From Nymphaea colorata (lineage: Eukaryota; Streptophyta; Magnoliopsida; Nymphaeales; Nymphaeaceae), in NCBI RefSeq assembly GCF_008831285.2, contig NC_045146.1, forward strand, positions 7,142,972 to 7,206,971: DNA of 64,000 nucleotides. Direction: 5' to 3'. The position numbers were made by a program, and so were the translations under genes. Each line of letters opens with the position of its first letter. Position 1 is the stretch's first letter. Of this stretch, positions 16,310-59,200 are shown one piece after another. The notes beneath the pieces are model-generated. The model saw only the letters and a program-made list of their open reading frames with translations, was not told the DNA's origin and searched no databases.

Positions 16310-16457
16310 TGTAATCACCCCAAATTTATTTTAAAAAGATTATGATGTTTCATCCAACCACGAAACTCAAATTTAGATCCAAATTAAATCCAAAATACAA
16401 CTTTCATATCCAAATTAGATCCAAAACCCAAGTTCAGATCCAAATCGATCATTTAAG

Positions 16458-16890
16458 ACCCATTTGCCCCTCATTTTGACCAAAAAATCTTCTCTTAGAG
16501 GGTGATTTTAGTCTTTTTGGTAGATAAGACCAATTTGCCCTTCCTCTTGACAAAAAAAATCTCCTTTTTAGAGGGTGACTTTAGTCATTTTAGGTGGACA
16601 AGACCAATTTGCCCTTCCTTTTTACAAAAAAATCTCTTTTTAGAGGGTGATTTTAGTCTTTTTGGGTGGACAAGACCCATTTGCCTTTCCTTTTGACCAA
16701 AAAATTTCCTTTTAGAGGGTGATTTTAGTCTTCTTGGGTGGACAAGACCAATTTGCCCTTCATTTTGACCAAAAAAACCTCCTTTTAGAGGGTATTTTTA
16801 GTCTTTTTGGGTGGACAAGACCCATTTGTCTTTCCTTTTAACCAAAAAATCTCATTTTAGAGGGTGATTTTAGTCTTTCTAGGTAAAAAA
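16458..16890 (+). repeat. six-unit ~72-bp tandem repeat in 5' LTR
   Basis: Units begin near GACCAATTTGCCCTTCC and contain TTTTAGAGGGTGATTTTAGT and TTTTTGGGTGGACAA. Most units are about 72 bases. Because 72 is a multiple of three, some units read through as a repeated peptide on either strand, but there is no sign of a real protein. The array lies just upstream of the LTR TATA box. The 3' LTR has the same array (29,094-29,520) with different unit-level changes. Confidence 0.85.
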
Positions 16891-16923
16891 AATTCAAATT
16901 TAGGGTTTTAGCTCCAAATCTTC

Positions 16924-16930
16924 TATAAAT
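16924..16930 (+). promoter_or_regulatory. TATA box of gypsy LTR promoter
   Basis: TATAAATACC lies in the 5' LTR about 610 bases from its start, and the same motif is in the 3' LTR at 29,555. The C+T-rich sequence that follows is typical of plant transcription starts. The promoter assignment is inferred from position and motif only. Confidence 0.5.
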
Positions 16931-17214
16931 ACCCTTCATTTTCCCCTCTCTTGGGTAAGATTGGCCCTTGGGAGAAACTCTAGTGTATTCTCACTTGAAG
17001 ACTTAGAGTTTCTCTTGAGCTCTCTCTCTCTCCCTCTTCCTCTCTCCATGTTCCTCTCCAACTTGGAGCAAGCTACAACTCTCTTGGAGGCATCATCTTG
17101 GAGCTTCACTCAAAGGGGATTTCAAGTGAATGTGTTTATCTTCCTTAGGTCATTTCTCATTAGAGGTATGTAATCATAATCTCTTTCATTTTTTTTTTCT
17201 TTTTTTTTTTCTCA

Positions 17215-18130
17215 TCTTCATCTCCCCATGACCAAAGGAGATAGCCCTCAACCTCTTTCTAGAGACAAGAGGCTATGCTCAAGTGCACCGGGAGCATGAG
17301 AAGATGAGATGATATTTTATTTTATGATTAAATCATGTTCTTTCAAGTATTCTTGTTGATGTTATTTTTTATTAATATGTTCTTATTATTATGCTATTCC
17401 TTTTTCTTGAACATAGTCTTGTTGATTGGTTTCGTTTTCTCTTCTCATTTTTATCTTCCCATGGCTAAAGGAGATAGCGCTCAACCTCTCTTTAGAGACA
17501 AGAGGCTATGCTCAAGTGTACCGGGAGCATGAGAAGATGAGATGATATTTTATTTTATGATTAAATCATGCTCTTTCAAGTATTCTTGTTGTTGTTGTTC
17601 TTTCTCTTCATGAATATATTCTTGTCGTTATTGTTATTTCCTTTCTTCAATATAGCCTTGTTCTTGTTATTTTTTTTTCTTTCTTCCTCCTCTTCCCATG
17701 GCCAAAGGAGATAGCACTCAACCTCTTTTTAGAGACAAGAGGCTATGCTCAAGTGCATTTGGAGCATGGAAGGATGAGATGATCTTTCATTTCATGATTG
17801 AATTATGTTTTCTCTTTTATTAAATATGGCATTGTTTTTTTTTCTATATTTTCTCCTCATCTTCATCTCCTTATGGCTAAAGGAGGTAGCACTCAATCTC
17901 TTTTTAGAGACAAGAGGCTGAGCTCAAGTGCACCGGGAGCATGGAAAGATGAGATGATCTTTCATTTTAATCATGTTCTTTCTTTTCATTAATACATTCT
18001 TGTTGTTCTTTTGCTTCCTCTTATTTTCCTCTATTCCTTATTTTCCCATGGCCGATATAGCTCTCAATCTCTATTTTAGAGTCAAAAGGCTATACTCAAG
18101 TGCACCGGGAACATGAAAAGATGAGGTGAC
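17215..18130 (+). repeat. five-unit module array with hairpins in 5' LTR
   Basis: Five imperfect units start near 17,226, 17,459, 17,696, 17,872 and 18,046 (spacings about 233, 237, 176 and 174). Each contains AAAGGAGATAGC-like sequence, a CCTCTT...AAGAGG stem, an ATGCTC...GAGCAT stem and a GATGAGATGAT block. The first three units keep both stems; the last has a broken second stem. The 3' LTR has the same array at about 29,840-30,750. Confidence 0.85.
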
Positions 18131-19790
18131 ATATCATTTCATAGTTACATCATGTCCTCCCTCCTAATTGAACCTTGCACTTTCTGTCATCCTCTTTCTC
18201 TTTTTCCTTCCTTGAATGTTGTCTATATATTTTCCATGCATAGTTGCTTGGTTTTCTACTTATATGTGAATGTATGGTAGAAATGAGAGTGTGGTTTGGT
18301 TACTCTTTATTTTCATATTAATTTTTGAGGTTGGGACTTGTCCAACCCGAGATAAATCCTCACGAAAATATACATGTTAATATGCATTTGCATGTCATTT
18401 TACGCTAGTTTCCTTCTTAATCATCCCATTAAAAACCCTAACGAGTGTCTCGTTATGTTGCTTGTTTTCTTCCATACCCAACGGTGGAAGAAATATATCC
18501 CTTAGAACAAACTAAATAAAAACATTCTATGCTTATTTTCCAAAACATTTTCAAAATGAACCTTCTAACATGGCCCTATGGACTTAGCTGAGACTCTTGT
18601 ATGAGTCCAAGCTCCCCTCCGGCCCACATTAAACTTGAAGTTGGCAATTTTAAGTTATTCCTTGATTTCTAATCTTGTGAAGGTATGGATGTATACACAT
18701 GTTATATACATCTATGCCAACATGATGACCCCTCATCCTTCTCTCTTTATGCTTTCACTTTTCATTTTATAAATTTTCATATGTGCATGAATACGTATGT
18801 ACATGTGCTCCATTTCTTCTCTTTCAAATATTTATTCCACTTCTCAAGACAAATATCTTCTCTTATAAAATTTCTCAAACCCATATATACGTATGATATT
18901 TTTCTTTTCCTCTAAAATTTCTCTTTCTCTTTAAATCAATACATCTTTTTCTCTTAAGCTTTGATGTGTGTATATGTGATGGTATGTACACATGTATGCA
19001 TGTCTTTCTTTATCTCTTTCTCTTTCTTTTCATAAAAGTGTTTTATCTCTTGTATTTTTTTTAACATTCTCCTCTCATGATATTTTTATCTACCAACTTC
19101 ATTAAAAACACAAACCAAGTAATGACCCAACATTGAAGTCATGCTTGATGGTCTACAATCTCAATCCCCTTTCAAAAATTTTCTCTTCTGATATACAACA
19201 AGAAAAACCTTAGATGTTTGTTGTGGTAGGAATGACTTTAGATGAATGTTGTGGTATGAATGTTTTATATTCTTTCAATCATATAGGATAAATGCATCCA
19301 TGCATTCTCACTCACTTTATTTCACTTATGATCACAAGCACCTCTCCAAAAGAACTTAAGCAAGATGGGATGAAGCTCTAGCTAGGTGGTAACCGAATTA
19401 GAGCAAAATCTAAAACCTACTTAAAGTCTTAAGAGAACACTAAAGTGATTTCAAAATGATTTCACAAGCTTTTCAAATGATACTCACTAATTCCACTTTT
19501 TCCTCAAAACATTTCACATTTTCAAGCAACCCTTCAAGAGTCTTTTCAATAATTTGAAACATCAAACTTTCAATATTTTCTACACCGCATATAGATTCAA
19601 AAAAATATTTAAGTTAAAATGAAATGCATTAATGATGAACATAGCCCTTGGGTTGATTACCCCCGGTAAAGGTGCTGGGAACGATCAATCCTCGTACCGA
19701 CGAGCGAGTCCCTTTTCTTTCTTATTTCAAAACAAAACTCAATTTTTTTGAAGCACTCCAAAACCAATAAAATTTTGGGATGCAAACAGA

Positions 19791-20591: not shown

Positions 20592-21791
20592 ATGTATTCT
20601 TTCCAACGTGGTGTCACATTCCCTTATGATCACATCCTCTTTGGGTAAGGTCTCGAACGATCCACCTACATTTCTCTTGATTCTAAACCTTTGGCTTCCG
20701 AATGGTATCGAACTTGGCATCCCACCTTCTCTCGGATGTTTCCTTCTTACTTTGAAGAATGTGGGCTAGAGACAGTGGCAGCTGGAGGAATGCAGTCAGT
20801 TGATGAAAATTTGGTACATGCAATCGCCGAGCGTTGGAACCCAAGGACCTCCTCTTTTTGGTTTCCATGGGGAGAAATGACAATATTACTAGATGAATGT
20901 GCCAAAATACTAGACCTCTCTACCCCAACTTGCGACCCAAATGATCTATTGGAAAAACAATTCCTTATGAACCCAACCAAGGTCAATGCAAATGACCTCA
21001 TTGGTCACTTTACTGGACGAAAAACTTGGCCTTTAGTAGAAAACCATGAAAATCAAAGCATCAACATGAAAAATTTGTATGAAGAATTTGGAACATATGT
21101 TGAACCTTCTACCCTACCTCGAAAAGCCATAGGGAGAATTAAACATTGTATGATGCTCTGCACAGTAGGAGTGACCCTTTTTACCGATGAAAGTGACCTT
21201 TTAGATGTCTGTATTGCCCAACTTTTCTAGGTATGGGGGCATAGAGGGACCCGACACTTGTCAGTAGCAATGACAGCCTTAGCCTTCCTTTACCGATGAC
21301 TCACCCGCTTTACCATTGGAGATACCGACTTCATAGAAGGATGCACATATGTTTTACAATTATGGTTCCTCAAGCATGCGGGACCCCAAGCCAGTCTATT
21401 TAGAAACACTGATAGATCATTGACAACCTTGGAGCAATACCGTCGTTTGATCGAGCAATTGAATGAAAGAGAGATCATTTGGGACTATTGTGATCGTCGG
21501 CAGAACCTACCCGGATACACTCACCATCATCATGGCCGTACCACACTCTTGGGCCCTTACTTCATAGTTGATTATTGTGTTGATAGATGTATGAGACAGT
21601 TCTCTCAAAGGTAGAAGATGGTCTCTGTGCATGCACCAATTGGAGCTATTCCTGAATTCGACCTTACTTCTCCTCAATGGACGGCATTGTTTGCAGTAGC
21701 TCGACAAGAATATAAGACACAGATATCATACACTTGGTTCATAGGCACAGTGGTGAAGAAGGAATATGCTGAGTGGTGGGATGCCAACTGA
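20592..21791 (+). pseudogene. ORF1 upstream of gag, plant-mobile-domain-like protein
   Basis: One frame of 400 codons runs from ATG at 20,592 to TGA at 21,789, interrupted only by in-frame stops at 20,646 (TAA), 21,228 (TAG), 21,297 (TGA) and 21,612 (TAG), with no frameshift. It contains ERWNPRTSSFWFPWGEMTI followed by LLDECAKILDLSTP, the pattern of plant mobile domain proteins (RW.P.T..F..P.GE..ITL.D....LGL). Further on are TLFTDESDLLDV and, after the second stop, VWGHRGTRHLSVAMTALAFL. Plant mobile domains occur in the host proteins MAIN and MAIL1 and in extra ORFs of some Tat/Ogre elements. The function in the element is unknown. The domain call is by motif memory, not a profile search. Confidence 0.7.
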
Positions 21792-21983: not shown

Positions 21984-24759
21984 ATGGTTGAAACTAGATC
22001 GCAAACTAAGCAAGCTCCTCAGAACGAGGCTTCATCTTCTGAACTCCGGCCAGAAACACTTGGCCTACCAGCAATCGAGCCAGAAGCTTACCATATGTTC
22101 CGTTTCTTCATGGAGCGATTCATGAAAGAGCAAGAAGAGAAAAATGCCTTGATGGTTACTCCAGAGCCAGAGAATGAAAAGGCTGCCAAGCAGAAAAAAA
22201 AGAAGAAGAAGAACAAGTCCTCTCCTACAGATCAGGATGAAGATTATTTGAGTTCGGATTCGGCAATTAGTAAGGAAGTAAAACCCGAACTGCTTCCTCT
22301 CAAAAAGAAAAAGACAACAAAGAAAAGCAAATAGAGAAAAGAAATTATGATAGAAAGCAGCTCACCTAGTCCTATCACCACTGAAAGTTCGGAAGAGAAG
22401 CCCAAAAGGAAGAGAAAGTCTTCCAAGAAAGGCAAAAAAACCAAGAAGTACATCCCTAGTAGTAGCTCAGACAGTGAGAGTTCTGAAGAAAAAGTAAAGG
22501 AAATAAAGGGCAAGAAGAAAAAGACCAAGCCAGAATTGGTCGAATCAAGTGATGATGAAAATTCGACTAAGCGCAGATTCTATGAAATGGAAAAAAGAAT
22601 GAACAATCTTGAGCTTAGGGGGAAGGGAAAACGTTCATATTCATGTGAGGACTACTACCTTGGCATTGAAGGGGACGAAGACGTGAAAGGCCTGCCCAGA
22701 GAATTAATCAGATATGATGAAACCACTTACCCACACGTTCATCTTTCAACCTTTTTCAATTATTGCTACAAAATTCGGACAAATAACAGAGCTTTGTTCT
22801 GATATTTTTCAAGAAGTCTTGAAGGCATTGCCGCACAATGGTACAAAGAAAATGTCAATCCAATCGAGCTGAAAGAGTTTGACAAGTTGATTAATATGTT
22901 TGTTGAAAGATTTGAACAAAATGCTCCCATGGCTCCAACCCTCAGTACCATTTGCAGTCTTCATCAGAAACAGGGAGAAAAGGCTCGGGAATTCATCCAA
23001 AAATGGAGAATTCAATGCAATAAGATGAATGAGCCCCTTTCTGAGACACAAGCCTTGTCACTCATCAAGAAAAATCTTGCCCAACCCTTGAAAAGTCTCA
23101 TCCGCAACGCCCCGATCAAAACCTTTACTGAGTTGATGGAACAAGCAAACTCGATAGAAGAAGGAATTGTGGAAGGAGATTTTGATGGAATTATTGCTCC
23201 TAAATACAAAGAAGATGGAAAGAAAGGAGGAAGGGCACAATTGCCCACACACTTCATAGCCAATGCTGGCATTAGAAAGGATCATAGCAACAACTACAAG
23301 CATGACAATGAAGTAAATTTCAAGAAGAACTCGCAGTTTCTCAAAGACGACGATGAAAGGAAAAACAAACACGCAGGTTGGAGCTACGACCAAAAATTCA
23401 CTCATCTCAGCCAGTCTCGTGAGAAGATCCTCGAATACCTTCTCGCCAAAGGAACTATCGTCTTGCCAAAAGTATCTGAGCCTCCGAGAATGATGGGAAG
23501 AAATAAAGAAAAATTGTGTAAGTTTCATCGTGCCCCTGGTCATGACACTGAGCATTGTTTTGTCCTCAAAAATATTATTCAAGACTTCATCAACAAGAAT
23601 CTTAAGATTGGTGGTGATAGCATCCCTGAGGTGTTGAGGAATCCATTTCCTGACCATGGGAAGGCGGCAGTGGCCAAGATCACCACAGACATTCTACTTC
23701 CATATCATCCGCAGGAGCACATCCGACCTTGTGGTGAAAGTAGTTCACATAAAGTCATGGTGACAGATTAAGGTGGGAAACCTTTGGATTTTATTGCTCT
23801 GATGAACGGAAAGATTGAAGGTTCATCCGAAAAACTTTCAATAATCCCAAAGACTTTTATCTTACAAAGCGGTGATGATGAATCATCAAATGACTCTCTG
23901 GATGAAGATTCAAGCTACTGGGGTAAGGTCCTCCCCTTGGAAGAACGTATAGTTGAAGGAGATTGGATTCGACCCTCTAAGGACCAGTCAATTACCTTTT
24001 CAGAGAAGGACCTCTCAAAATGGGGATATTTTCATGAAGATGCTCTTTACATCGTCGTCCAAGTCAATGGAATGACTGTGCCACATGTATTGATTGACGG
24101 AGGAAGTTGCTTGAATATTTGCCCTGATCTTTCGGCCAAAGCTTTGGGATTTCGTGAAGACAAATATTGTTCCGATAATACCAAGATCTATGGATACGAT
24201 GGCCGAGGCATGAACAGCAAAGGTACCCTCGACAAGAATGTGATCATTGAAAATACTAGCCATTGTATTGTATTTCACGTGGTAGATGTACAACCATCAT
24301 ACAACTTGCTTTTGGGACGACATTGGATCCATCAGGTACGAGGGATCTCATCCACTCTTCATCAATGCCTGAAATGGTGTTTTGGTCCATCAGTCATCAC
24401 TGTCCGTGCTGAGGATCCGGTTGAGAGGTTGATGCAACCCATGCTCCCTAGGCCAATCGATCCGGTGGATGTACCGAGCATAAGAACAACAAAGGACAAA
24501 CCTTTAGAAGAATGGATGCAGAACATGGAGATAGGAAAACCATTCGGGAATGCTTATACTATTTCAAGCAATCGTACAAGTTACCAAGAACACCCATTGT
24601 ATATACATTTCATGAAAAATCTTAAGGGTTTTCAGTTGCTTCTGAAATGTAGCTATCGTCCATTCACTGGCCTCGGGAAAAATGAAGATGGCATCTTGTA
24701 ACCGATTAGCATCTCTTTTCAGATGAACATGAGAGGACTGAGATATCAGGAAGGAATTT
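21984..24759 (+). pseudogene. gypsy gag-protease pseudogene
   Basis: Single frame from ATG 21,984 (MVETRSQTK). The N-terminal half is rich in Lys, Glu and Ser. The gag core (about 22,640-23,200) includes YFSRSLEGIAAQWYKENVNP and FIQKWR. A modified knuckle CKFHRAPGHDTEHC lies near 23,517-23,558. The protease site near 24,090 reads VLIDGGSCLNI, with Asp-Gly-Gly in place of Asp-Ser/Thr-Gly, as often seen in the Tat group, followed later by YNLLLGRHWIH. In-frame stops are at 22,332 (TAG), 22,800 (TGA), 23,769 (TAA) and 24,699 (TAA). Gag coats the RNA genome and the protease matures it; this copy cannot make an intact product. Confidence 0.88.
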
Positions 24760-24968
24760 GAAGAAGATCTTGGGGGCTAACAGTATTCACTTTTGTTTCA
24801 AAATCCTCCCATGAATTTTGTAATTTTAAACATCTTTTTGTTTGGTTTCATGAGAGGACCCATTCTATGAACTAAGAACCTTTTTTTTTTATATATATAT
24901 GCAAATGCAAGTAATCTTTTGTTGTCGATTTTAATTTCGTCCAACTCTTTCCTTTATCCTCTTTACAG

Positions 24969-27900
24969 GATGTTGGAACTCAATATGTCTCAATTTATTC
25001 TTTTTCCTCGGAAGTCTCCCCAGAAAGCATTTATTGAACAAGCAGTCGGTGAAATGGAACCTATGGCAATACTCGAGTCAGAATTACATGAATTCACTCA
25101 GATTCAAAAACAAGAACATCCCTCATCCTTGGTTAATGATCCAATTGAAGAAATTAATATTGGAACCAGTGAAGATCCTAAAATTCTTCAAATTGGCACC
25201 AGTTTGTCAGCGGATGAGAAGAAAAGATTGGTGGACTTTCTTATAAGTAACCAAGACGATTTTGCTTGGACTTATGAAGATATGCCAGGCTTAGACCCCC
25301 AGTTGGTCGAACATCGTTTGCCCTTAAATCCTAACTGCAAGCCGATTAAGCAAAAATTGCGCAAGCCTGACCCTCGACTAAAAGGCCCTGTGAAAGAAGG
25401 ACTAGAGGACTTGCTAAAGGCAAAATTCATTCGTGCTATTGATTACCCGAATGGTTGGCGAACATCGTGGTGGTCCCTAAGAAAAATGGTAAAATCAGGT
25501 TGTGCATTGACTTTCGAGACTTGAACAGAGCCACACCGAAGGATGATTATCCTCTTCCAAACATTGATCTATTGGTAGACAGTACTGCAGGCCATGCAAT
25601 GTTTTCTTTCATGGATGGATATTCGAGATATAACCAGATCAAATTAGTAGTCAAAGATCAACCTAAGACCGCTTTTACTACACCCTGGAGCACTTTTTGT
25701 TACACGGTAATGCCATTTGGGTTGAAGAATGCTGGAGCAACCTATCAAAAAGCCATGGCTGCCATCTTCCATGACCAGATGCATAAAATCATGGATGCAT
25801 ATATCGATGACATATTGATCAAATCCAAGAAAAGAGAAGATCACATTGAAACTCTTGCCCAAGTATTCAAGAGGCTTTTACAGTACAAGCTTCGCCTGAA
25901 TCCTCAAAAATGTGTGTTTGGGGTTGAGTCAAGCAAGCTGTTGGGTTTCATGGTCAGTAAGAAGGGAATTGAAATGGATCTTACCAAAGCTAAGGCAATA
26001 ATCGATATGCCACCACTTACCAATATCAAGGAGTTGCGAAGCTTGCAAGGACGAATCCAATCCATTAGACGATTCATTTCCAATCTGGCCATGAGATGCG
26101 AGCCATTCAACTAGCAGTTGAGGAAAGGTGTCAAGTTTGAATGAGGTTTTGAATGCCAACAGTCATTCGAAAGGATCAAGAAATACCTTCTAAATCCACC
26201 AATTCTAAAACCACCAACGTTGGGTAGACCATTGCTGCTTTACATCACAGTGAATGAGTCAGCATGTGGCGGCTTTTTGGCACAATATGAGGAAGGAAGT
26301 CGCATTGAACATGCAATCTATTACATTTGCAAGACTTTTGTTCAATACGAATAGAAGTACTATCCAATAGAGAAAACTTGTCAGGCATTGGTTTGGATGT
26401 GTCAGAAGTTGAGACATTATTTGTTAGCTTGTGAGGTCAAGATACTCTCCAAACTAAATCCTCTCAAGTACATCTTGGAACAACCATTCCTTAATGGGCG
26501 TATCACCAAATGGAAAGTTCTGTTGATGCAATATGATCTTGAATATGTGTCTCAATAGTTAATCAAAGGACAAGTAATTGTGGATCAGTTAGCAGACTTC
26601 CCTTAGTACGAAGAAATCAGAACAAATGATGAGTTTCCAGATGAACGTGTACTAAGATTGATAATGGTTTCGACATGGAAGATGTACTTTGATGGGTCTA
26701 GAAATGTGATGGGAGCAGGCATAGGCATCTTACTCATCACTCCAGAAAGCGAAATGATCCCGTACTCTTTGAAACTTGATTTTCCATGTACCCATAACAT
26801 GACTGAATATGAAGCCCTCATACAAGGACTTCGTTCTTTATTGAGTTTTCAAGTGAAAAGAGTGCATGCCTTCGGCGACTCTCAGCTTATTATAAACCAA
26901 GTGAATGGAGAATGACAAGTCAAAGATGAAAAGTTGGTGCCATATCAAGAAATTGCTACCTCCTTAATCTGTCAATTCGAAGAAGTACAATTGGCTCACG
27001 TAAAGAGAGAAGGTAACCCTATTGCGGATGGCCTCGCGAGCTTAGGATCGACCATCACTTTTCGAACCAATGAAACAATCTGTTCTTTTGAGATTGGAAG
27101 ATTAGAACACCCTGCTTTTGAAACGATGGCGCATGTTCATCATATCCAAGGGGGGAATACGCCTTGGTACCATGACATCAAAAGGTACATTGAAAGCGGA
27201 GAATTCGCGGCTGAAATGACTAAAAATGAACAAAAAGCAATACAACGTATGTCAGCGAGGTACTTTATCCTAGCAGGGGTATTTTACAGGCATGGATTTA
27301 GCACTGAATACTCTCGGTGCCTTGATGAAGATGAGGCAAAGGAAGTAATCGAAGAATCACATCGAGGAGATTGTGGGGGCCATGTTGGTTACCAAACCCT
27401 CACCAAACAAATAATTCGAGCAGGGTATTATTGGCCTACCATGCAAAAAAATTGTCACCAATTTGTCAAAAGATGCAAAGAATGCCAATTGCATGCTCTA
27501 GTGATTCATGCCCCAGCCTCTCACTTGCATTCTGTGACATCTCCTTGGCCATTTTCAATGTGGGCCTTTGACGTAGTGAGACCGATATCCCCTGCAGCTT
27601 CTAACGGCCATAAGTATTTTCTTGCTGCAACGGATTATTTTACCAAGTGGGTAGAAGTCGTCACACTCAGAACAGTGGAAGGACGTCATGTAGTGTCATT
27701 CATTCACAAAAATCTTCTTTGCAGATTTGGAATCCCTCATGATATAGTATCTGACAATGGAACTCATTTCAAGAATGAAAAGATGAGGCAATTGTGCAGC
27801 AGGTACCACATCACGCACCATTTTTCAGCTCCTTATTACCCCCAAGGCAATGGACAAGCAGAGGCTACAAACAAGATCTTGATCCGCATCTTGGAACGGA

Positions 27901-28411
27901 CAGTAGAAACTGAAAGAGATTGGCATGAAAAGATGCATAACGCTCTATGAGCATATCGCACCACTATGAGAACTCCAACAAATGCCACTCCAGCAGAGCT
28001 AGTCTATGGAACAGAAGTGGTTCTACCATTACATGTGTTGAAACCTGCTTTGAAGTTCGCTTCTCTCATAGAGCTCCCTCTTACTCAATATCAACAGAAA
28101 AGGCTAATGCAGCTCGATGTGCTAGATGAAAAGAGGCTAAAAGCGGCTGAACATGCTAAAGCTTATCGCCAAAGGGTAGCCAGGCAATTTGCCAAGTCAG
28201 TTATCGAGAGACAGTTCAAAGTGAATGATTCGGTCCTACGATCTGCGGTGTACCTTAGAGGACGACCACGAGGCAAGTGGGCACCAAATTGGGAAGGCCC
28301 ATATGTCATTAAGGAAGCTTTGCCCCACAATTCATACCGACTAATTGATACTGATGGGGTGGAACTTGCCGATCTTGTTAATGCATTCACCTCAAGAAAT
28401 TTTATGTCTAG
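24969..28411 (+). pseudogene. gypsy pol pseudogene: RT, two RNase H domains, integrase
   Basis: Reverse transcriptase lies at about 25,250-26,110, with RLCIDFRDLNRATPKDDYPLP, MPFGLKNAGATYQ and catalytic YIDD (near 25,800). A first RNase H region (26,200-26,560) keeps the fold-like sequence (CGGFLAQY, KLRHYLLACEV) but lacks the usual catalytic Asp. A second RNase H (26,670-27,050) has MYFDGS, MTEYEAL and FGDSQLIINQV. Integrase (27,340-28,330) has the zinc finger residues, then WAFDVV, IVSDNGTHF and GNGQAEATNK with the catalytic residues, and a GPYVI motif. A frameshift at about 25,455 and another near 28,386 (after which HLKKFYV-stop can be read to 28,411) interrupt it. Stops occur at 26,112, 26,142, 26,352, 26,556, 26,604, 26,913 and 27,948. 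Confidence 0.92.
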
Positions 28412-28517
28412 TTCTCTTGTATTCATTTTCCAATCAATGTCAAACGTTTGTGTTTTCACATCGATTATTCAATCTAGATTCTTCCCAGTCGTAAAACATG
28501 ACAATTTCACTGGACCA

Positions 28518-28549
28518 TTTTTTATTATTATTATTATTATTATTATTTT
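28518..28549 (+). repeat. ATT microsatellite
   Basis: About nine tandem ATT triplets between the end of pol and the hairpin repeat. Confidence 0.9.
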
Positions 28550-28564
28550 CGCTCAGGGCTTGAG

Positions 28565-28856
28565 AGCAACCCGTGCAGGTAAAGGGTTAAACCTGCAATA
28601 TGAGGGCAACCCATGCAGGCAAGGGGTTAAACCTGCAAGGCTAGCCAAAACAACCCATGCAGACAAAGGGGTTAAACCTGTGCTACAAGCCAAAGCAACC
28701 CACACAGTTAAAGGGTTCAACTTGTGATGCAAGTCAAGGCAACCCATTCAGGGGGGTTAAACCTGAATTTGAAATCGGCAAACCCGTGCAGGTAAGGGGT
28801 TAAACCAGCAATTTAAGCTCAAACAACCCATTCAGGTAAGGGGTAAAGCCTGAAAT
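28565..28856 (+). repeat. seven-unit hairpin tandem repeat in gypsy 3' region
   Basis: Seven units of about 35-48 bases, each with CAACCC, a stem, GGGGTTAAA and the opposite stem arm. Unit 1 (28,574-28,597) pairs TGCAGGT with ACCTGCA; unit 2 (28,614-28,637) pairs TGCAGG with CCTGCA. Unit 4 (28,701-28,726) pairs CACAGTT with AACTTGTG. Units 5 and 7 pair TTCAGG with CCTGAA (28,747-28,767 and 28,831-28,854), so both arms changed together. Units 3 and 6 have partial or mismatched stems. Tat/Ogre elements are known to carry tandem repeats between pol and the 3' LTR; the paired changes are what stands out here. Confidence 0.9.
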
Positions 28857-28936
28857 ATCTCTATGAAAATGTCTTGTTTGAAAAATTTGTGGCGTTTATC
28901 TTTGTCACTAAGCACGGCTAACACCGGCTTATTAAC

Positions 28937-28949
28937 AAAGAGAGGCATC
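28937..28949 (+). promoter_or_regulatory. polypurine tract region before gypsy 3' LTR
   Basis: AAAGAGAGG ends four bases before the 3' LTR. It is the expected place for the plus-strand primer, although the last four bases (CATC) are not purine-rich. Confidence 0.45.
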
Positions 28950-31900
28950 TGTAATCACCCTAAATTTTTTTAAAAAGATTATGATGTTCCATCCAAGCAC
29001 GAAACTCAAATTTAGATCCAAATTAAATCCAAAATACAACTTTCATATCCAAATTAGATCCAAAACTCAAGTTCAGATCCAAATCGATCATTTAAGAATC
29101 ATTTGCCCCTCTTTTTGACCAAAAAATCTCCTTTTAGAGGGTGATTTTAGTCTTTTTGGGTGGATAAGACCAATTTGCCATTCATTTTGACAAAAAAAAT
29201 CTCCTTTTAGAGGGTGATTTTAGTTATTTTGGTGGACAAGACCAATTTGCCCTTCCTTTTTACAAAAAAATCTCCTTTTAGAGCGTGATTTTAGTCTTTT
29301 TGGGTGGACAATACTTATTTGCCCTTCATTTTAACCAAAAAATCTCCTTTGTGATTTTAGTCTTTTTGGGTGGACAAGACCAATTTGCCCTTCCTTTTGA
29401 CCAAAAAACCTCCTTTTAGAAGGTAATTTTAGTCTTTTTGGGTGGACAAGACACATTTGTCCTTCCTTTTGACCAAAAAATCTCCTTTTAGAGGGTGATT
29501 TTAGTCTTTTTAGGTCAAAAAAATTCAAATTTAGGGTTTTGGCTCCAAAATCTTCTATAAATACCATTCATTTTCCCCCCTCTTGGGTAAGATTGGCCCT
29601 TAGAAGAAACTCTAGTGTATTCTCACTTGAAGATTTAGAGATTCTCTTGAGCTTTCTCTCTCTCCCTCTTCCTCTCTCCATGTTTCTCTCCAACTTGAAG
29701 CAAGCTACAACCCTCTTGGAGGCATCATCTTGGAGCTTCACTCAAAGGGGATTTCAAGTGAATGTGTTTATCTTCCTTAGATCATTTCTTATTAGAGGTA
29801 TGTAATCATAATCTCTTTCATTTCTTTTTTTTTTTCTCATCTTCATCTCCCCATGACCAAAGGAGATAGCCCTCAACCTCTTTCTAGAGACAAGAGGCTA
29901 TGCTCAAGTGCACCGGGAGCATGAGAAGATGAGATGATATTTTATTTTATGATTAAATCATGTTCTTTCAAGTATTCTTGTTGATGTTATTTTTTATTAA
30001 TATGTTCTTATTATTATGCTATTCCTTTTTCTTGAACATAGTCTTGTTGATTGGTTTCGTTTTCTCTTCTCATTTTTATCTTCCCATGGCTAAAGGAGAT
30101 AGCGCTCAACCTCTCTTTAGAGACAAGAGGCTATGCTCAAGTGTACCGGGAGCATGAGAAGATGAGATGATATTTTATTTTATGATTAAATCATGCTCTT
30201 TCAAGTATTCTTGTTGTTGTTGTTCTTTCTCTTCATGAATATATTCTTGTCGTTATTGTTATTTCCTTTCTTCAATATAGCCTTGTTCTTGTTATTTTTT
30301 TTTCTTTCTTCCTCCTCTTCCCATGGCCAAAGGAGATAACACTCAACCTCTTTTTAGAGACAAGAGGCTATGCTCAAGTGCATTTGGAGCATGGAAGGAT
30401 GAGATGATCTTTCATTTCATGATTGAATTATGTTTTCTCTTTTATTAAATATGGCATTGTTTTTTTTTCTATATTTTCTCCTCATCTTCATCTCCTTATG
30501 GCTAAAGGAGGTAGCACTCAATCTCTTTTTAGAGACAAGAGGCTGAGCTCAAGTGCACCGGGAGCATGGAAAGATGAGATGATCTTTCATTTTAATCATG
30601 TTCTTTCTTTTCATTAATACATTCTTGTTGTTCTTTTGCTTCCTCTTATTTTCCTCTATTCCTTATTTTCCCATGGCCGATATAGCTCTCAATCTCTATT
30701 TTAGAGTCAAAAGGCTATACTCAAGTGCACCGGGAACATGAAAAGATGAGGTGACATATCATTTCATAGTTACATCATGTCCTCCCTCCTAATTGAACCT
30801 TGCACTTTCTGTCATCCTCTTTCTCTTTTTCCTTCCTTGAATGTTGTCTATATATTTTCCATGCATAGTTGCTTGGTTTTCTACTTATATGTGAATGTAT
30901 GGTAGAAATGAGAGTGTGGTTTGGTTACTCTTTATTTTCATATTAATTTTTGAGGTTGGGACTTGTCCAACCCGAGATAAATCCTCACGAAAATATACAT
31001 GTTAATATGCATTTGCATGTCATTTTACGCTAGTTTCCTTCTTAATCATCCCATTAAAAACCCTAACGAGTGTCTCGTTATGTTGCTTGTTTTCTTCCAT
31101 ACCCAACGGTGGAAGAAATATATCCCTTAGAACAAACTAAATAAAAACATTCTATGCTTATTTTCCAAAACATTTTCAAAATGAACCTTCTAACATGGCC
31201 CTATGGACTTAGCTGAGACTCTTGTATGAGTCCAAGCTCCCCTCCGGCCCACATTAAACTTGAAGTTGGCAATTTTAATTTATTCCTTGATTTCTAATCT
31301 TGTGAAGGTATGGATGTATACACATGTTATATACATCTATGCCAACATGATGACCCCCCATCTTTCTCTCTTTATGCTTTCACTTTCCATTTTATAAATT
31401 TTCATATGTGCATGAATATGTATGTACATGTGCTCCATTTCCTCTCTTTCAAATATTTATTCCACTTTTCAAGACAAATATCTTCTCTTATAAAATTTCT
31501 CAAACTCATATATACGTATGATATTTTTCTTTTCCTCTAAAATTTCTCTTTCTCTTTAAATCAATACATCTTTTTCTCTTAAGCTTTCATATATGTGTAT
31601 ATGTGATGGTATGTACACATGTATGCATGTCTTTCTCTCTCTCTCTCTCTTTCTTTTCATAAGAGTGTTTTATCTCTTGTATTCTTTTTAACATTCTCAT
31701 CTCATGGTATTTTTATCTACCAACTTCATTAAAACCACAAACCAAGTAATGACCCAAAATTGAAGTCATGGTTGATGGTCTATAATCTCAATCCCCTTTC
31801 AAAAATTTTCCATTCTTATATACAACAAGAAAAACCTTAGATGTTTGTTTTGGTAGGAATGACTTTAGATGAATGTTATGGTATGAATGTTTTACATTCT

Positions 31901-32416
31901 TTCAACCATATTGGATAAATGCATCCATGCATTCTCAGCCACTTTATTTCACTTATGATCACAAGCACCTCTCCAAAAGAACTTAAGCAAGATGGGATGG
32001 AGCTCTAGCTACGTGGCAACCGAATTAGAGCAAAATCTCAAACCTACTTAAAGTCTTAAGAGAACACTAAAGTGATTTCAAAATGATTTCACAAGCTTTT
32101 CAAATGATACTTACTAATTCCACTTTTTCCTCAAAACATTTCACATTTTCAAGCAACCCTTCAAGAGAGTCTTTTCAATAATTTGAAACATCAAACTTTC
32201 AATATTTTCTGCACCGCATATAGAATAAAAAAATGTTTAAGTTAAAACGAAATGCATTAATGATGAACATAACCCTTGGGTTGATTACCCCCAGTAATGG
32301 CGCCAGGAACGGTCAATCCTCGTACCGACGGGCGAGTCCCTTTTCTTTCTTATTTCAAAACAAAACTCAATTTTTTTGAAGCACTCCAAAACCGATAAAA
32401 TTTTGGGATGCAAACA
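28950..32416 (+). repeat. 3' LTR of gypsy element (3.47 kb)
   Basis: Starts TGTAATCACCC and ends GGGATGCAAACA. It carries the same two arrays (29,094-29,520 and 29,840-30,750) and TATA box (29,555) as the 5' LTR. One 72-bp unit near 29,345 has lost TTTTAGAGG-type bases. A CT microsatellite near 31,632-31,652 is expanded relative to the 5' LTR. Confidence 0.93.
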
Positions 32417-46639: not shown

Positions 46640-49480
46640 TTGTATTACATATGGTGTGCATACAAACAAATCGGATAGACCTATCATTGTTACATGTTTA
46701 AAACATAGTCTAGATGCTAGTGCTTTAGTTAGAATATCTGCAACCATATCTTTAGTATTGAGGTACTGAATTCACACTAGATGATTTTATGTCCTCTCGT
46801 TAACAACAAAGTATTTTAATTTCATATGTTTATATGAATTTGTACTCTTGTTGTTATTAGAGAAAGACGTTGCAGCTTCATTGACACAATAAACTTTAAG
46901 TTGCCTCTCATTACCTTGAGGTTTTATGAAGCATGCAACTAAACCATGCCATCTTTTAGGAACTTTGATTTATCTTTTCCACAAGATTTGGTGAATGAGA
47001 TGGACAAATTGAATCTATTTTATTTCATTCTTTCTAGATAACCAATGAAGAAACTACTAGTTGTTCTAGGATCAAAGGCTTTTATGTAGAGGCTATATAG
47101 TTTAGATTCAGCAGGACATCTCTATATGTGTATATATGATATGGAACGTTTCCTACTTGTCCATAACTTATACAGAGTCTTACAACTTTAGTATGAACTT
47201 TATTCAAAAATATATATTATTGTCTTAAGAGCTTTTGTCACAGATGAACATGAAGAGTAGAGAAATTTAACTTAGGTTTAACTATTTCTTAAGTGTACGA
47301 TTTTTCTTTTTTTGCGATGCCATTTTGTTAGGCACTACCAGACATAGTATATTGAAGTACGATGCACTCTTCTTTTAGAAATCATGCTAATGGCCCCTCA
47401 ATTTGACCCATTTCAATAAATCTACCATAATAATCACCATCTCTGTATGTAAAGTCTAGATATTTTATAATCCATTCATTGACAAACCTCTTTATTCTCT
47501 TTCATATAAAAGTTATTATTTATGATGCCACATTTATTGCTCGTTAATGCAAATTTAGAAACCAATTTATTGAGTCTTTAGGATTAACTTATATAAATCA
47601 TCACAAAAAAGAGTAAAACTAATTTCAGCAAAATCTTTATATATTTGCATTTTAGTATTTACAACCTTCAAACAAAATCCAAGTCTATCCAATCTTGATA
47701 CAAATGTGAGCTTTCTGTTATATAATGGTACAAAAAAAAAATCATGAATCTCCAAAATGGAACCAATACCAAGACTAACTTGGTGGGTCCCAACAGCCTT
47801 TACACATGAACACATCCTATTTGCTGAAAAGATGCCCCTTTCATGTGTTATATTGTCTTAAGTGCTTCTGCCGCAGATGAACATGAAGAGTAGAGAAGTT
47901 TAACATAGCTCTTACAATTTCTTTAAGCGTATAATTTTTCGTTTTTGCTATGCCATTTTGTTAGGCACTACCAAACATAGTATATTGAAGTACGATGCCC
48001 TCTTCTTTTAAAAATCATGCTAATGGCCCTTCAATTTGACTCATCTTAGTAAATCTACCATAATATTTGCCCACCTCTATATATAAAGTCTAGATGTTTT
48101 AAAATCCATTTATTTACAAGCCTCTTTATTCTCTTCTCAGAGATATTGCCTAATCTACGATGCTATAGAATATAAAAGTTATTATTTATGATGCCACATT
48201 TATTGCTAGTTAATGCAAATTCAGAAACCAATATTTCTTGAGTCTTTATGTTTAATTTATATAAACCTTCATACAAAAGAGTAAAAATAATTTCAGCAAT
48301 TTTTTTATATATTTGCATTTTAGTGTTTACAACCTTAGACAAAATCCAAGTCTATCCAATCTTGATACAGATATGAGCTTTCTATTATATAATGGTACAA
48401 AAAATACATCATGAATCTCCAAAGTGGAACCAATATCAAGACTAACTTGGTAGGTCTCAACAGCCTTTACACATGAACACATCCTATTTCCTAAAAAGAT
48501 GCTCCTTTCATCCATCGTTGGTTCTCTTCTACTCAAAAAGTATTACAAAGCATTGAAAATATATATCGTAACACCTAAGTCAATCCACCAGCTATTCATA
48601 GGAGCATGTAATAAATTACATTCATGAGAAACAAATGACAAATTACCTTTTTCTCTCATTGTTTCTTGCATTTCATGCAATTTGACTTTCTATGTCCTTT
48701 CTTCTTACAAAAGAAGCACTTTATAGGAGCCAGATTAGACTACTTGGTTTGATAAGTACCTTTACCTGATAACTTCTTTCTGACACTCTTTTTTATAACC
48801 TTTCTTTTGGGTCCAAACTTGTTGGGGTCTTGGTGAGAAGTCATATATGTGCTATGCACCTTCTTAGCCCGTATTCTCTTCTCTTCCTCAACACACTTGG
48901 ACGAAAGTTCATTAACTATCTACTGAGGATCATGTATGTTGTAAGACCTTTCAAACAGTACATGCTTTGGTGGTAGAGACACCAAAATGAAATGCACTAA
49001 GAAAGAGTGTGATATCGCCAATGACATGTCATTCAGCTGCATTGCTATGTTTCTCATTTCTATGATATGCTGACAAATGTTACTCACACCAATGTGCTTT
49101 ACAAATATCAATTTAGACATCAGGGTACTACTCTAGCTTTACTAGAGCTGATAAATTGAGCATCAATGGCATCAAGAAACTCTTTCACCATTCTACATTG
49201 TGAGATTTCACCTCGTATGCTCTTCACAACTCTAGATTGCAAAAACAACAAACTGAGCCCATTAGAATGCTCCAATTTTTCAAAGAAAACTTTTTCCTCA
49301 TGTGTACTTTGCGGTGTAAGGGCTGCAAGGCTTTTTCTATCAAAATGCTATATTCAGATCCATATACCCCAAAGTGAACATCATAATTTCTTTTCATTCA
49401 TTGAAATTTAATCCACCAAGAAAAAGAATACCGCTAAAGCTTGTATAAAAATAGAACTAGACACTACAAAATAAAAAAAG
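46640..49480 (-). pseudogene. copia-B gag-pol pseudogene
   Basis: Gag (49,480-48,650) has MMFTLGYMDLN and EMRNIAMQLNDM. The zinc knuckle CFFCKKKGHRKSNC near 48,680-48,720 is an intact CCHC. The pre-integrase region (ERSIFLGNRMCSCVKAVETY, VFFVPLYNRKLISVSRLDRL) occurs twice because of a duplication. Integrase remnants read FGSA-stop-QNGIAKTKNYTLKE. The RNase H end near 46,920-46,680 reads SYKHMKLKYFVVNE and NTKDMVADILTKALASRLC. The reverse transcriptase is missing or unrecognisable, and stops are frequent. Confidence 0.75.
47218..48540 (-). repeat. ~640-bp tandem duplication inside copia-B pol
   Basis: Two consecutive copies of the pre-integrase to integrase segment. Markers such as CATTTTGTTAGGCACTACCA lie near 47,322 and 47,955, and the peptide LDRLGFCL occurs in both (near 47,680 and 48,345). 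Copies differ at many sites, so the duplication is not recent. Confidence 0.75.
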
Positions 49481-56222: not shown

Positions 56223-59200
56223 TCAGGAGGCAGTATCTCTCCTGCTGTCTGAAAGCAGGAGGTTGGTCGCAGGAGGGAGGAGAGCGACAGAGCCGAGCTG
56301 GGGACTCGAGTACTTGCTGAAAACAACTTTTAGCTTGCTATCTGCAGCCGTTGCATGGAAGTGGACCATGCGGCTAGCACACTCTCTGCCATTAATTTTC
56401 AACAGAAGTAGGTCAGAGATAAAATAAACTCCATATATGTGCCACATTTTTATAAAATAAGCACGCAAGAAAAATGTCGTGGATGAAATTTAAATAAGTT
56501 TCTTTCTCTTACTTTAGAAGTCGCTGTTTCGCATCAGTGGGCATGAGAAACAGCGACTTTCTATTGCTTCAGTTTTGCAGAAATGAGAAAAAATCATCTT
56601 TTATAAATGTTTCTTCTCTAGGGGGGTTTTAGCGGTTTGACTTTGAGTCCCTTTTATCTGAGATTTATGTAGGATTTTTTTCTTCTATTCAAAAGTATTC
56701 CTGTTTCTTCAATGACGAGTAAAGAAAGTCAATCGATTCCCAGTTTGCCACCATCAGAAAACCTGCAATGACGACTGTTCAGAAAGTTGCTTGAATGTAA
56801 AGCTAGTGTTAGTTATGCATCCTCATCCACATGGTTATACCAGTTAGGCCAGTCTAGGCTGTGGAAACAAGAAAATTGGGCTGTAAGTAAATAGGCTTGG
56901 GCTATTCAAACGGCCTCTCGATTCTGCTTCCAGTCATTTATATGAGTTTTCTACCTTAATCGAAGAAGTCCACCATCTGACTACCAAGATGTATGGGCAT
57001 AGCTTGGCAAGCCAGCGTTTGATCTGCTGCTGCCACCTAGGTCCCTAAGAAGGCCTTCGACCCCGAAGCAGGGAGTGGGGGGAGGGGCTTCGGCTTTTCA
57101 GGTATCATCACCTCCCCACAACCAACACACATATACACATGCACATACCTAAGCTGCTGCTCTGGGTAGGAGGTGTGCCTCTTGAGAGTCTCTGTCCATA
57201 AAGGTGTCCTGTGGAGCGTGCAGCGAGCGGCATAGACAGCAGAAGCAGCTAGAATTGATGGGCAGTAGGCTATCATGCAGTACTCAACCAGGCTCATTTC
57301 AGCAAAGAAAAACACCAAATTCTCCATCTGGTAGTGTTTATTTAGAACATTGGCGTGTAAGACAAAACGGCAAAAGAAAAAAAAACTGTAATGATATGTG
57401 ACGAAAACTCCTAACCTCCTTATCTGAAGCAGCTGCCTTAAGGAACCGGAGCAAGAAAACGTAAGCTGTAGGCACTGTGAGGCTCCACTCTAGATGGTTA
57501 AGAATAGACTTTTCCATTACGAGGATTTGCTCTCTGTTGTATGCTCTGTCCGATATGCATACAAAATCATTGACCTGCAAGACGAAATGCTGAGCTACTA
57601 AATTTGGTTTGTCAGAAACATTTAATAATAAAATTGACTTATTCATTCCGTCAAAAACTTTTTTTGTTTTTGCATCCCTACCCAAACATACAAACAATAT
57701 TTTACAAAACTCATTAAGAAAATCGTTTTTACAATGTTTATGTCCGATATGCATACAAAATCATTGACCTGCAAGACGAAATGCTGAGCTACTAAATTTG
57801 GTTTGTCAGAAACATTTAATAATAAAATTGACTTATTCATTCCATCAAAAACTTATTTTGTTTTTGCCTCCTACCCAAACATACAAACAATATTTTACAA
57901 AACTCATTAAGAAAATCGTTTTTACAATGTTTAGTCCAAACGCGAAAATCTTGGTTTGAAAGGAAACCTGAGTACATTTTTTAGTTATACAATAGAAAGT
58001 TGCTGCTTTCAAGTGGTTTGCGCATCGTTAATATTTTATTTAGAATCAAAAGCTTGGGAGAAAAAATAAGATCAACATTAATAACGTTAATATGGATAAA
58101 AATGGATTGTTTTAGTCTCTGCAGAACTCAAAAGAATTTAAGAAAAGAACTCAACTTTTACACAAACGTGTTCGATGGAATAGCAAAACTATGCTTATGA
58201 AAATCAGTTCTTTAGGCGGTTGTAAAAAAACTAAAAATCGCCATGTTTTTTTGTTATATCACCAAAACATGAGCATTTTCTGTAAAAAAAAAAAAAAAAA
58301 GTAAATTGAAAGTAAACGACTTGTATCATTTGAAATAAGTTTGTCACATAAACGCAAACTTTTGAAGGGAAATGCAAAAACACGCTCATGTTTCAATATT
58401 TTTTTATATGCCTGTATACCTTGCTTCAAGTTTGAATATATTATACCACATGAAGTAATATGTACTTCAAACGAAAGAAGCGGATAAATGGCCTTGAAAC
58501 CGAGTGCCTTTTTATTATTTGGCAAAACTGAGACGCCTTTCTATGACTTCTTTAGTTTACCTCAGGTGCCCAAATTTCTTCGTACTTGCAGGCTATGAGC
58601 ATTGCTGTCATCCCGGCTAATTGCAGATCTCTTCTACAGCAGCTTCTGGTTGAAAGGTATCTATCTACAATGTGCACTGCAAGGTAGAGAGTTTCGGGCA
58701 TTAGCTCAAACCTCGAATGAACTTCAATCAGCCAGTCCACCAGTATCGCTCTCATCTTTGAGTTTATTTCATATTGTGAGTCCATATAGTCATGAATTTG
58801 AATTGAAACCTGTGAAGATACAATTGATTCAGTAAATAATTTAGAACCATCACCAACAAAATTAAGTTAAAAAACCAATCAAGGAAAGACTTACCTCTGC
58901 AAGTTTATAAAATTTGTATATATCTTCCACATACTCAGCAACGGCCAACTGATCCTCGGCATCTGCGCTGTCGATGTCGTGATCGCTTTCTTTTGGTTTT
59001 CCAGACAGCCCACAAGCATACTTTGATTAAAACCAAGATTGGAATCAGTCAAAATACAGAATCACAACATAACGTTTCAGCCCAAGAACATAAAGAGGGA
59101 AAACTCACTTTGCTCCTGCTTGTGAGGACAGAAGTAAGGGTAACTTTTTTCTTGGAGGAAGCCTCTCTTGAACTATTTTTAGTTTCTGGGTTCCCTTTGC

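What the first reader, a model, noticed from the sequence alone, without database searches (positions are those of the whole stretch)
28565..28856. Hairpin tandem repeat with matched arm changes between pol and 3' LTR of the gypsy element
Seven units each carry an inverted pair around GGGGTTAAA. Units 1 and 2 use TGCAGG/CCTGCA, units 5 and 7 use TTCAGG/CCTGAA, and unit 4 uses CACAGTT/AACTTGTG. Both arms changed together in three units, which is unexpected under neutral drift and suggests that RNA or DNA structure is maintained. Units 3 and 6 are imperfect. Tat/Ogre elements are known to carry 3' tandem repeats that can seed satellites, but structure-preserving changes suggest a functional signal, for example in packaging, RNA stability or reverse transcription.
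Basis: partly seen in the sequence, partly recalled or inferred. Interest (0 to 1): 0.72.

Follow-up and report, generated by a model that had tools for sequence, protein, structure and literature searches.

The report
Hairpin repeat in an Ogre retrotransposon
A plant Ogre-type jumping gene carries, just before its right-hand terminal repeat, seven copies of a 40-45 base unit that can fold on itself in two ways, and some copies have matching changes on both sides of the fold; such repeats are common in these elements, and whether this fold does anything is open.

Summary
Window 28568-28854 holds seven units (spacing 40-45) between pol and the 3' LTR of a decayed Ogre (Ty3/gypsy, Tat) element with 97.2% identical LTRs. 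The hairpin arms (S2) are as described: units 4, 5 and 7 differ from units 1-2 on both arms. Unit 3 has G-U pairs at exactly the two positions where unit 4 has switched pairs.

Statistics are suggestive, not decisive. 39 of 42 S2 cells pair; a tree-based neutral simulation at the measured transition bias reaches pairing plus double changes in about 1 in 10,000 runs, but with the mutated positions taken as given the joint probability is 0.08. Units 5 and 7 group together, so the three changed units reflect about two histories. RNA fold energies do not beat shuffles. Neutral template switching could also match the arms. The collections searched gave no other copy. 3' UTR tandem arrays are a known Tat/Ogre trait; the two-helix unit is the unusual part.

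The parts
16310..19788 (+). 5' LTR of the element (TG...CA)
   Evidence: 97.2% identical to 28950-32416 over 3461 aligned bases; boundaries
20649..21614 (+). extra ORF upstream of gag, plant mobile domain (PMD), in two pieces
   Evidence: Pfam PF10536, E 5.3e-11 for 20649-21227; the second piece (21300-21611) scores below the Pfam cutoff
22803..23771 (+). gag piece
   Evidence: Pfam Ty3_capsid 1.9e-8 and Retrotrans_gag 2e-7
24698..24968 (+). putative intron between the gag-pro and RT reading frames, GT...TTTACAG, 271 nt (inferred, splicing not shown)
   Evidence: sequence; in Ogre elements the two ORFs are on average 274 bp apart and the region is an intron in pea and Medicago Ogre (PMC6317226 section 13)
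25443..26114 (+). reverse transcriptase piece
   Evidence: Pfam RVT_1 1.6e-32
26145..26558 (+). first RNase H, in two pieces separated by a stop
   Evidence: RT_RNaseH_2 3.4e-11 and RT_RNaseH 2.7e-13
26607..26915 (+). second RNase H (aRH position, between RH and INT)
   Evidence: Pfam RVT_3 2.9e-6
26916..28420 (+). integrase region; end of pol estimated near 28420
   Evidence: rve 5.7e-16 and Integrase_H2C2 2.5e-13 in 26916-27947; end inferred from the translation
28568..28854 (+). seven-unit array with two crossing inverted pairs per unit
28568..28597 (+). U1 core: S1 5', S2 5', S1 3', S2 3' (TGCAGG/CCTGCA)
28608..28637 (+). U2 core (TGCAGG/CCTGCA)
28652..28682 (+). U3 core (TGCAGA/CCTGTG): two G-U pairs and one mismatch
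28697..28726 (+). U4 core (CACAGT/CTTGTG): two pairs changed on both sides, one G-U, one mismatch
28741..28767 (+). U5 core (TTCAGG/CCTGAA), shortened loop
28781..28810 (+). U6 core (TGCAGG/CCAGCA): one mismatch
28825..28854 (+). U7 core (TTCAGG/CCTGAA); one S1 pair lost
28934..28945 (+). likely polypurine tract, four bases before the 3' LTR
   Evidence: sequence AACAAAGAGAGG; assignment by position, inferred
28950..32416 (+). 3' LTR

Best explanation
This is the tandem-repeat part of the 3' untranslated region of an Ogre (Tat, Ty3/gypsy) retrotransposon (shown by anatomy). Its unit is a small fold-back module of two inverted pairs that cross each other, AACCC/GGGTT (S1) and TGCAGG/CCTGCA (S2) (shown). 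In the element's genomic RNA each unit can form S2, S1, or both together as an H-type pseudoknot (inferred from complementarity and loop lengths). The modules were kept foldable while the array was amplified and diverged in ancestral elements before this copy inserted (inferred from unit divergence of 0.38 against LTR divergence of 0.029). The most likely use is as a repeated cis signal of the full-length RNA, for example for export of the intron-retaining RNA, packaging or stability (inference, no direct evidence).
For: S2: 39 of 42 cells pair, four cells in two pairs changed on both sides, and the score falls away when partners are slid by 1-3 columns (the tool warns that a structure read from the same sequences tends to beat slid versions anyway). 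No reordering of the 3' arms among the units pairs better than the real order (maximum 39; 96 of 5040 equal it). U3 shows U-G and G-U exactly where U2 has U-A and G-C and U4 has C-G and A-U, the expected intermediate. Tree simulation at kappa 4.26: paired cells 39 or more p 0.053, double changes p 0.008, joint 0.0001. With two column-rate classes set by me from the observed variability, 0 of 4000 arrays reach the observed values. S1: 9 of 10 columns invariant, where 15 of all 45 columns are (hypergeometric 4.8e-5, chosen after seeing the data); pairwise mismatch 0.00 and 0.06 in the S1 arms against 0.53 in the linker. Loop lengths 1, 1-5 and 3 nt are compatible with an H-type pseudoknot (general knowledge). 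Two other arrays of the same element serve as controls: the 72-bp LTR repeat (five units of each LTR) has no 6-bp consensus stem, and the 233-bp repeat (four units, 5' LTR only) has three stems without a double change. The element has a 271-nt candidate intron, so intron-retaining RNA would have to leave the nucleus; MusD, a mouse LTR element, uses a structured element with a pseudoknot for that (PMC12786077 passage).
Against: One array in one dead copy. With positions fixed and kappa 4.26 the joint p is 0.079. Of 500 column shuffles 88 reach the number of pairs with changes on both sides. Single-unit RNA folds are no better than shuffles (z -1.52 to +0.89) and the whole array as RNA has z -1.05, 12 of 100 shuffles as good. 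S2 alone is only -1.1, -1.5 and -2.6 kcal/mol in U3, U4 and U6, weaker than S1 alone, so the compensated unit U4 is not predicted to form S2 as its best fold. S1 never varies in 4 of 5 pairs and is simply lost in one unit at the fifth, so it has no covariation support. The 3' arm of a unit also pairs well with the 5' arm of the next (30 of 36 against 33 of 36). The junction of 4-5 nt in six of seven units is long for a classical coaxial pseudoknot (general knowledge). The control arrays are more alike (0.81-0.86 identity) than these units and so had less chance to show double changes. No Rfam family matches.
Confidence: 0.4

Rival explanations
1. Mutational maintenance without function: during replication or reverse transcription the polymerase briefly copies one arm from the other (template switching, quasi-palindrome correction), so arms change together in one event.
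For: The 5' arm of U4 (CACAG) is the exact reverse complement of the 3' arm of its neighbour U3 (CTGTG), so one switch could make both changes at once. Template switching is reported to create hairpins, fix the pairing of existing stems and produce multi-base compensatory changes (PMC8794818 abstract and section 8). The minus-strand DNA of the array folds better than all 100 shuffles (z -3.01), which would favour such events on cDNA.
Against: U4 keeps a mismatch and a G-U next to the loop, where a copying event spanning the arm would have matched them. The study found matched changes most enriched at 4-nt loops, in a table that ends at 8 nt, while the S2 loop here is 9-13 nt. It does not explain why S1 is nearly invariant.
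Confidence: 0.28
2. Ordinary hypervariable 3' UTR tandem repeat: the founder unit happened to contain inverted pairs, and the matched changes are the few that chance and a strong transition bias give, noticed because a 64-kb window was read for oddities.
For: Tat/Ogre 3' UTRs commonly carry tandem arrays that vary in monomer sequence and length (PMC7004042 passages). Positions-fixed joint p 0.079 at the measured kappa. Perfect 5+6-pair H-type patterns, AT runs left out, also occur at four other places on the + strand (4533, 9470, 12722, 35731) and at five places on the - strand; within the array three of seven units are perfect by that measure. RNA fold energies are ordinary.
Against: Free-position tree simulations give joint p 0.001 or less at each of four kappa values. 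Of 4000 random ancestors, 166 had any consensus 6-bp stem and none reached the observed values. Core columns are conserved against a free linker.
Confidence: 0.27
3. The conserved core is a DNA or RNA-DNA signal rather than an RNA fold: the AAGGGG-like runs act as extra polypurine-tract-like plus-strand primers, or the core is a protein-binding site with dyad symmetry.
For: All seven units carry a purine run of 6 or 7 before TT or TA; minus-strand DNA folds better than 100 of 100 shuffles.
Against: Runs are short, and the likely polypurine tract at 28934-28945 has a different sequence. It does not predict matched arm changes with G-U intermediates.
Confidence: 0.05

Closest known systems
3' UTR tandem repeats of Tat/Ogre elements (Macas et al. 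2009, Gene, not read, cited in the papers below; PMC7004042, passages read)
   Same: Lineage, position downstream of gag-pol and before the 3' LTR, short array, diverged monomers.
   Different: The passages read describe these arrays as hypervariable and as satellite seeds, and the words hairpin and secondary structure do not occur in that paper's main text; here the unit has two conserved crossing inverted pairs. Whether free satellite arrays of this unit exist could not be tested.
Upstream pseudoknot domain of tobacco mosaic virus 3' UTR
   Same: Consecutive small pseudoknots in a 3' UTR (three in TMV; PMC4683447 passages), here up to seven possible units.
   Different: No sequence relation looked for or claimed; TMV pseudoknots are supported by probing and mutants, these are only predicted; junction loops here are long (4-5 nt in six of seven units).
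RNA transport elements of mouse LTR elements (MusD MTE, IAP RTE)
   Same: Cis RNA structures of LTR elements; MTE has pseudoknot and kissing-loop motifs and promotes export of full-length RNA (PMC12786077 passage).
   Different: Not described there as a tandem array; no evidence here for export activity; different host kingdom.
Template-switch-maintained hairpins (PMC8794818, abstract and section 8 read)
   Same: Multi-base matched changes in hairpin arms.
   Different: Loop is longer than the 4-nt loops enriched there, and U4 keeps a mismatch.

Membership tests
Ogre (Tat, Ty3/gypsy) | Two RNase H domains with aRH between RH and INT | tested here: met
   RT_RNaseH models in 26145-26558, RVT_3 in 26607-26915, integrase from 26916; criterion from PMC6317226 section 13. 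Shared with Retand. That the second domain is of the archaeal type was not tested by phylogeny.
Ogre (Tat, Ty3/gypsy) | Extra ORF 5' of gag with plant mobile domain (in 57% of Ogre) | tested here: met
   PF10536, E 5.3e-11; frequency
Ogre (Tat, Ty3/gypsy) | gag-pro and RT-RH-INT frames separated by an intron-like stretch (mean 274 bp) | tested here: met
   GT at 24698, TTTACAG ending 24968, 271 nt; splicing itself not testable; the protease itself was not matched by Pfam
Ogre (Tat, Ty3/gypsy) | RT-RH-INT phylogenetic placement with Ogre | not tested
   No reference set of plant elements was at hand
Ogre (Tat, Ty3/gypsy) | Target site duplication of 4 or 5 bp | tested here: inconclusive
   Flanks GGTTG and TCTTG, 3 of 5 match
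Tat/Ogre 3' UTR tandem repeat | Tandem array between pol and the 3' LTR | tested here: met
   Array 28568-28854, LTR from 28950
Tat/Ogre 3' UTR tandem repeat | Same array in other copies, or as free satellite | not testable with these tools
   No genome held for the window; no relative of the RT in viral contigs by the patterns used; no tandem-junction match there; the one genome-contig hit (L124) ends before a 3' UTR
H-type RNA pseudoknot | Two helices in a-b-a'-b' order with bridging loops | tested here: met
   Sequence order and loop lengths; complementarity only; all 11 pairs perfect in three of seven units
H-type RNA pseudoknot | Both helices form together (probing or covariation of both) | tested here: inconclusive
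   S2 covaries weakly, S1 hardly varies; no probing possible
Known Rfam RNA | Match to a covariance model | tested here: not met
   No match at gathering threshold in the whole window, none to E 1 in 28300-29000

The most novel reading that the evidence does not exclude
A string of up to seven H-type pseudoknots in the 3' UTR of a plant LTR retrotransposon, kept foldable by selection and used to bring the intron-retaining genomic RNA out of the nucleus or into particles, with the tandem form giving many binding sites; the hypervariable Tat/Ogre 3' UTR arrays would then be fast-evolving structured RNA rather than junk that seeds satellites.
Probability: 0.1. Interest if true: 0.75.

Novelty: new member of a known kind. 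Interest (0 to 1): 0.33.

Why it matters
Tandem repeats in Tat/Ogre 3' UTRs are a known source of plant satellites, and PMC7004042 says that the exact mechanism that generates them is yet to be determined (passage). If the unit is a structured RNA module, it gives a testable reason why such arrays are kept: selection on the element's RNA amplifies foldable units, which later escape as satellites. If the matched arms come from template switching, the array is a natural record of that mutation type in a retroelement. Either way the test is cheap wherever the host genome is available.

Tried and rejected
Search for copies: the window has no held genome. A stricter pattern gave 3 stretches; L122 and L123 are the same locus in two related contigs; each of the three holds one such motif, and the 600-800 bases read around it and the tandem-repeat scans show no array of the unit (no Rfam match). 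Because the pattern itself demanded both inverted pairs, these are not counted as support. RT as query: nothing in viral contigs; one Tat-like RT in a Streptomyces clavifer contig (L124) ends before a 3' UTR. Tandem-junction pattern in viral contigs: 0 hits.

Coding repeat rejected: unit spacing is 40, 44, 45, 44, 40, 44, so the frame changes. Known RNA family rejected. No tRNA gene in the window. Literature text search for unit words gave one unrelated cyanobacterial vector paper (listing only). Papers on RNA transport elements and intron retention were seen as a listing only.

The simulation used a consensus one letter short, which put the S2 partners out of register; its probabilities are discarded and replaced. 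Its unit tree and distances do not depend on the error. In one search the list of pseudoknot-like sites was dominated by AT runs and cut in the output; it was counted again without AT runs.

Full report
What is there. The window carries a 16.1-kb LTR retrotransposon. LTRs are 16310-19788 and 28950-32416, both TG...CA, 97.2% identical over 3461 aligned bases, 66 transitions and 31 transversions, 11 indels, K2P 0.0286, rate ratio about 4.3. Internal order: plant-mobile-domain ORF, gag, a frame in the protease position with a sub-threshold G-patch match at its end (no protease match in Pfam), candidate intron 24698-24968, RT, RNase H, second RNase H, integrase. In-frame stops break the gag region, the RNase H pieces and the stretch from the second RNase H to the integrase end, and the reading frame changes at the start of RT, so this copy is dead. 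PMC6317226 (passages and section 13 read) gives aRH between RH and INT for Ogre and Retand, the plant mobile domain in 57% of Ogre, and a 274-bp mean gap between the two ORFs, an intron in pea and Medicago, for Ogre. All three fit. A target site duplication is not clear (3 of 5 bases), and no phylogeny was made.

The array. Seven units from 28568 to 28854, spacing 40-45, end 95 bases before the 3' LTR. Core: AACCC, one base, TGCAGG (S2 5'), 1-5 bases, GGGTT, AAA, CCTGCA (S2 3'); then a linker of 10-14 bases between units. Pairwise mismatch is 0.00 in AACCC, 0.06 in GGGTT, 0.25 and 0.30 in the S2 arms, and 0.53 in the linker. AACCC and GGGTT are a second inverted pair that interleaves with it, so each unit has the order a-b-a'-b' of an H-type pseudoknot. 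An ungapped weight matrix recovers six of the seven units and nothing else above 12.0.

Pair counts. On the alignment of all seven units (A1), S2 has 39 of 42 cells paired, S1 34 of 35, together 94.8%. Pair 7-31 is U-A in five units, U-G in U3 and C-G in U4. Pair 8-30 is G-C in three units, G-U in U3, A-U in U4, and U-A in U5 and U7. Broken S2 cells: U3 and U4 at the loop end, U6 in the middle. U7 loses one S1 pair. RNAalifold on A1 predicts S2 with a small covariation term of -0.63.

Is it more than chance? (a) Permuting whole 3' arms among units: 96 of 5040 orders equal the real one and none beats it (p 0.019). (b) Column shuffles: 4 of 500 reach the S2 pairing, 4 of 500 the number of double-changed cells, 18 of 500 the number of pair types, but 88 of 500 the number of pairs with a double change. 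(c) Branch events placed freely, kappa 4: p 0.050 for pairing and 0.018 for double changes; with positions fixed, 0.069 and 0.147, joint 0.079 at kappa 4.26 and 0.218 at kappa 8. (d) Evolution along the unit tree, kappa 4.26: p 0.053, 0.008, joint 0.0001; among 5266 runs with 13-15 differences from the consensus, 2 reach both. (e) Real consensus with two column-rate classes chosen by me from the observed variability and no pairing constraint: 0 of 4000 (a consensus 6-bp stem survived in 2369); random ancestors: 166 of 4000 have any 6-bp stem and 0 reach the observed values. The signal comes mainly from changes falling on partner positions; that the bases then match is not surprising with many transitions. 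U5 and U7 group together (tree), and U3 and U4 share their 3' changes, so the independent histories are few. S1 conservation (9 of 10 columns, p 4.8e-5) was tested after seeing it, and AACCC marks the unit start, so it is descriptive.

Controls. The 72-bp array (five units of each LTR) has no 6-bp consensus stem; the 233-bp array (four units, 5' LTR only) has three, none with a double change. These arrays are 0.81-0.86 identical, against 0.715 for the units, so they had less chance to show one. Perfect 5+6-pair H-type patterns outside AT runs occur at four other places on the + strand and five on the - strand of the window, so a single such pattern is not rare. Against the reading: RNA folds of single units are ordinary (z -1.52, 0.21, 0.89, -0.44, 0.06, -0.46, -0.38); the whole array has z -1.05 as RNA, -1.68 as + DNA and -3.01 as - DNA. 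S2 is weaker than S1 in U3, U4 and U6. The 3' arm of one unit also pairs with the 5' arm of the next almost as well (30 of 36 against 33 of 36).

Timing. Units differ by a mean K2P of 0.380 (distances only) against 0.0286 between LTRs, so the differences arose mostly in earlier elements. About four substitutions per array are expected since insertion, about one of them in the S2 arms, enough to explain part of the imperfections.

How it most likely works. Shown: an Ogre 3' UTR array of seven two-helix units with few, mostly matched changes. Inferred: the fold exists in RNA and was kept. Suggested only: a role for the full-length RNA, which in an intron-bearing element must be exported unspliced; MusD RNA uses a structured element with a pseudoknot for this (PMC12786077 passages), and tobacco mosaic virus has three consecutive pseudoknots in the upstream domain of its 3' UTR (PMC4683447 passages). 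The main rival is template switching, which can match arms without any function (PMC8794818 abstract and section 8): the 5' arm of U4 is the exact reverse complement of the 3' arm of U3 over five bases.

What is known. PMC7004042 (passages read) states that hypervariable tandem repeats are common in 3' UTRs of Tat elements including Ogre and that the majority of Lathyrus sativus satellites came from them; the words hairpin and secondary structure do not occur in its main text. PMC9659126 (passages) lists pea and soybean Ogre cases. My searches for hairpins or pseudoknots in plant retrotransposon repeats (listings, open-licence papers only) showed no title or abstract that describes this; that is not proof of absence. 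Macas et al. 2009 was not read; I know it only through these papers.

Verdict. The array is a member of a known kind, and its fold deserves one genome-wide covariation test.

Noticed in passing
16455-16884 and 29101-29515: Each LTR carries about six copies of a 72-bp repeat, and a 233/175-bp repeat block further in (17200-18129, 29825-30754), so this element has tandem repeats in the LTRs as well as the 3' UTR.
   Followed up: partly
28552-28564: CTCAGGGCTTGAG just before unit 1 could be a relic of an eighth unit with a deleted loop (arms CTCAGG/CTTGAG), or chance; the ungapped weight-matrix scan does not pick it up, but that scan also misses the shortened unit 5.
   Followed up: partly
L124 2900-4660: A 4661-bp contig of the Streptomyces clavifer JCM 5059 assembly encodes RT, RNase H and a second RNase H (RVT_3) in the order of plant Tat elements; probably plant contamination.
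   Followed up: partly
57547-57871: Two 131-nt direct copies, 98% identical, 194 nt apart.
   Followed up: no
402-681, 47302-48511: Dispersed and near-tandem repeat families (69-93% identity) outside the element.
   Followed up: no
L122 12094-12130 and the same locus in L123: Two related viral contigs share an intergenic 10-bp hairpin with the same GGGGTTAAA loop as the window units; found by a pattern that demanded it, so probably coincidence.
   Followed up: partly
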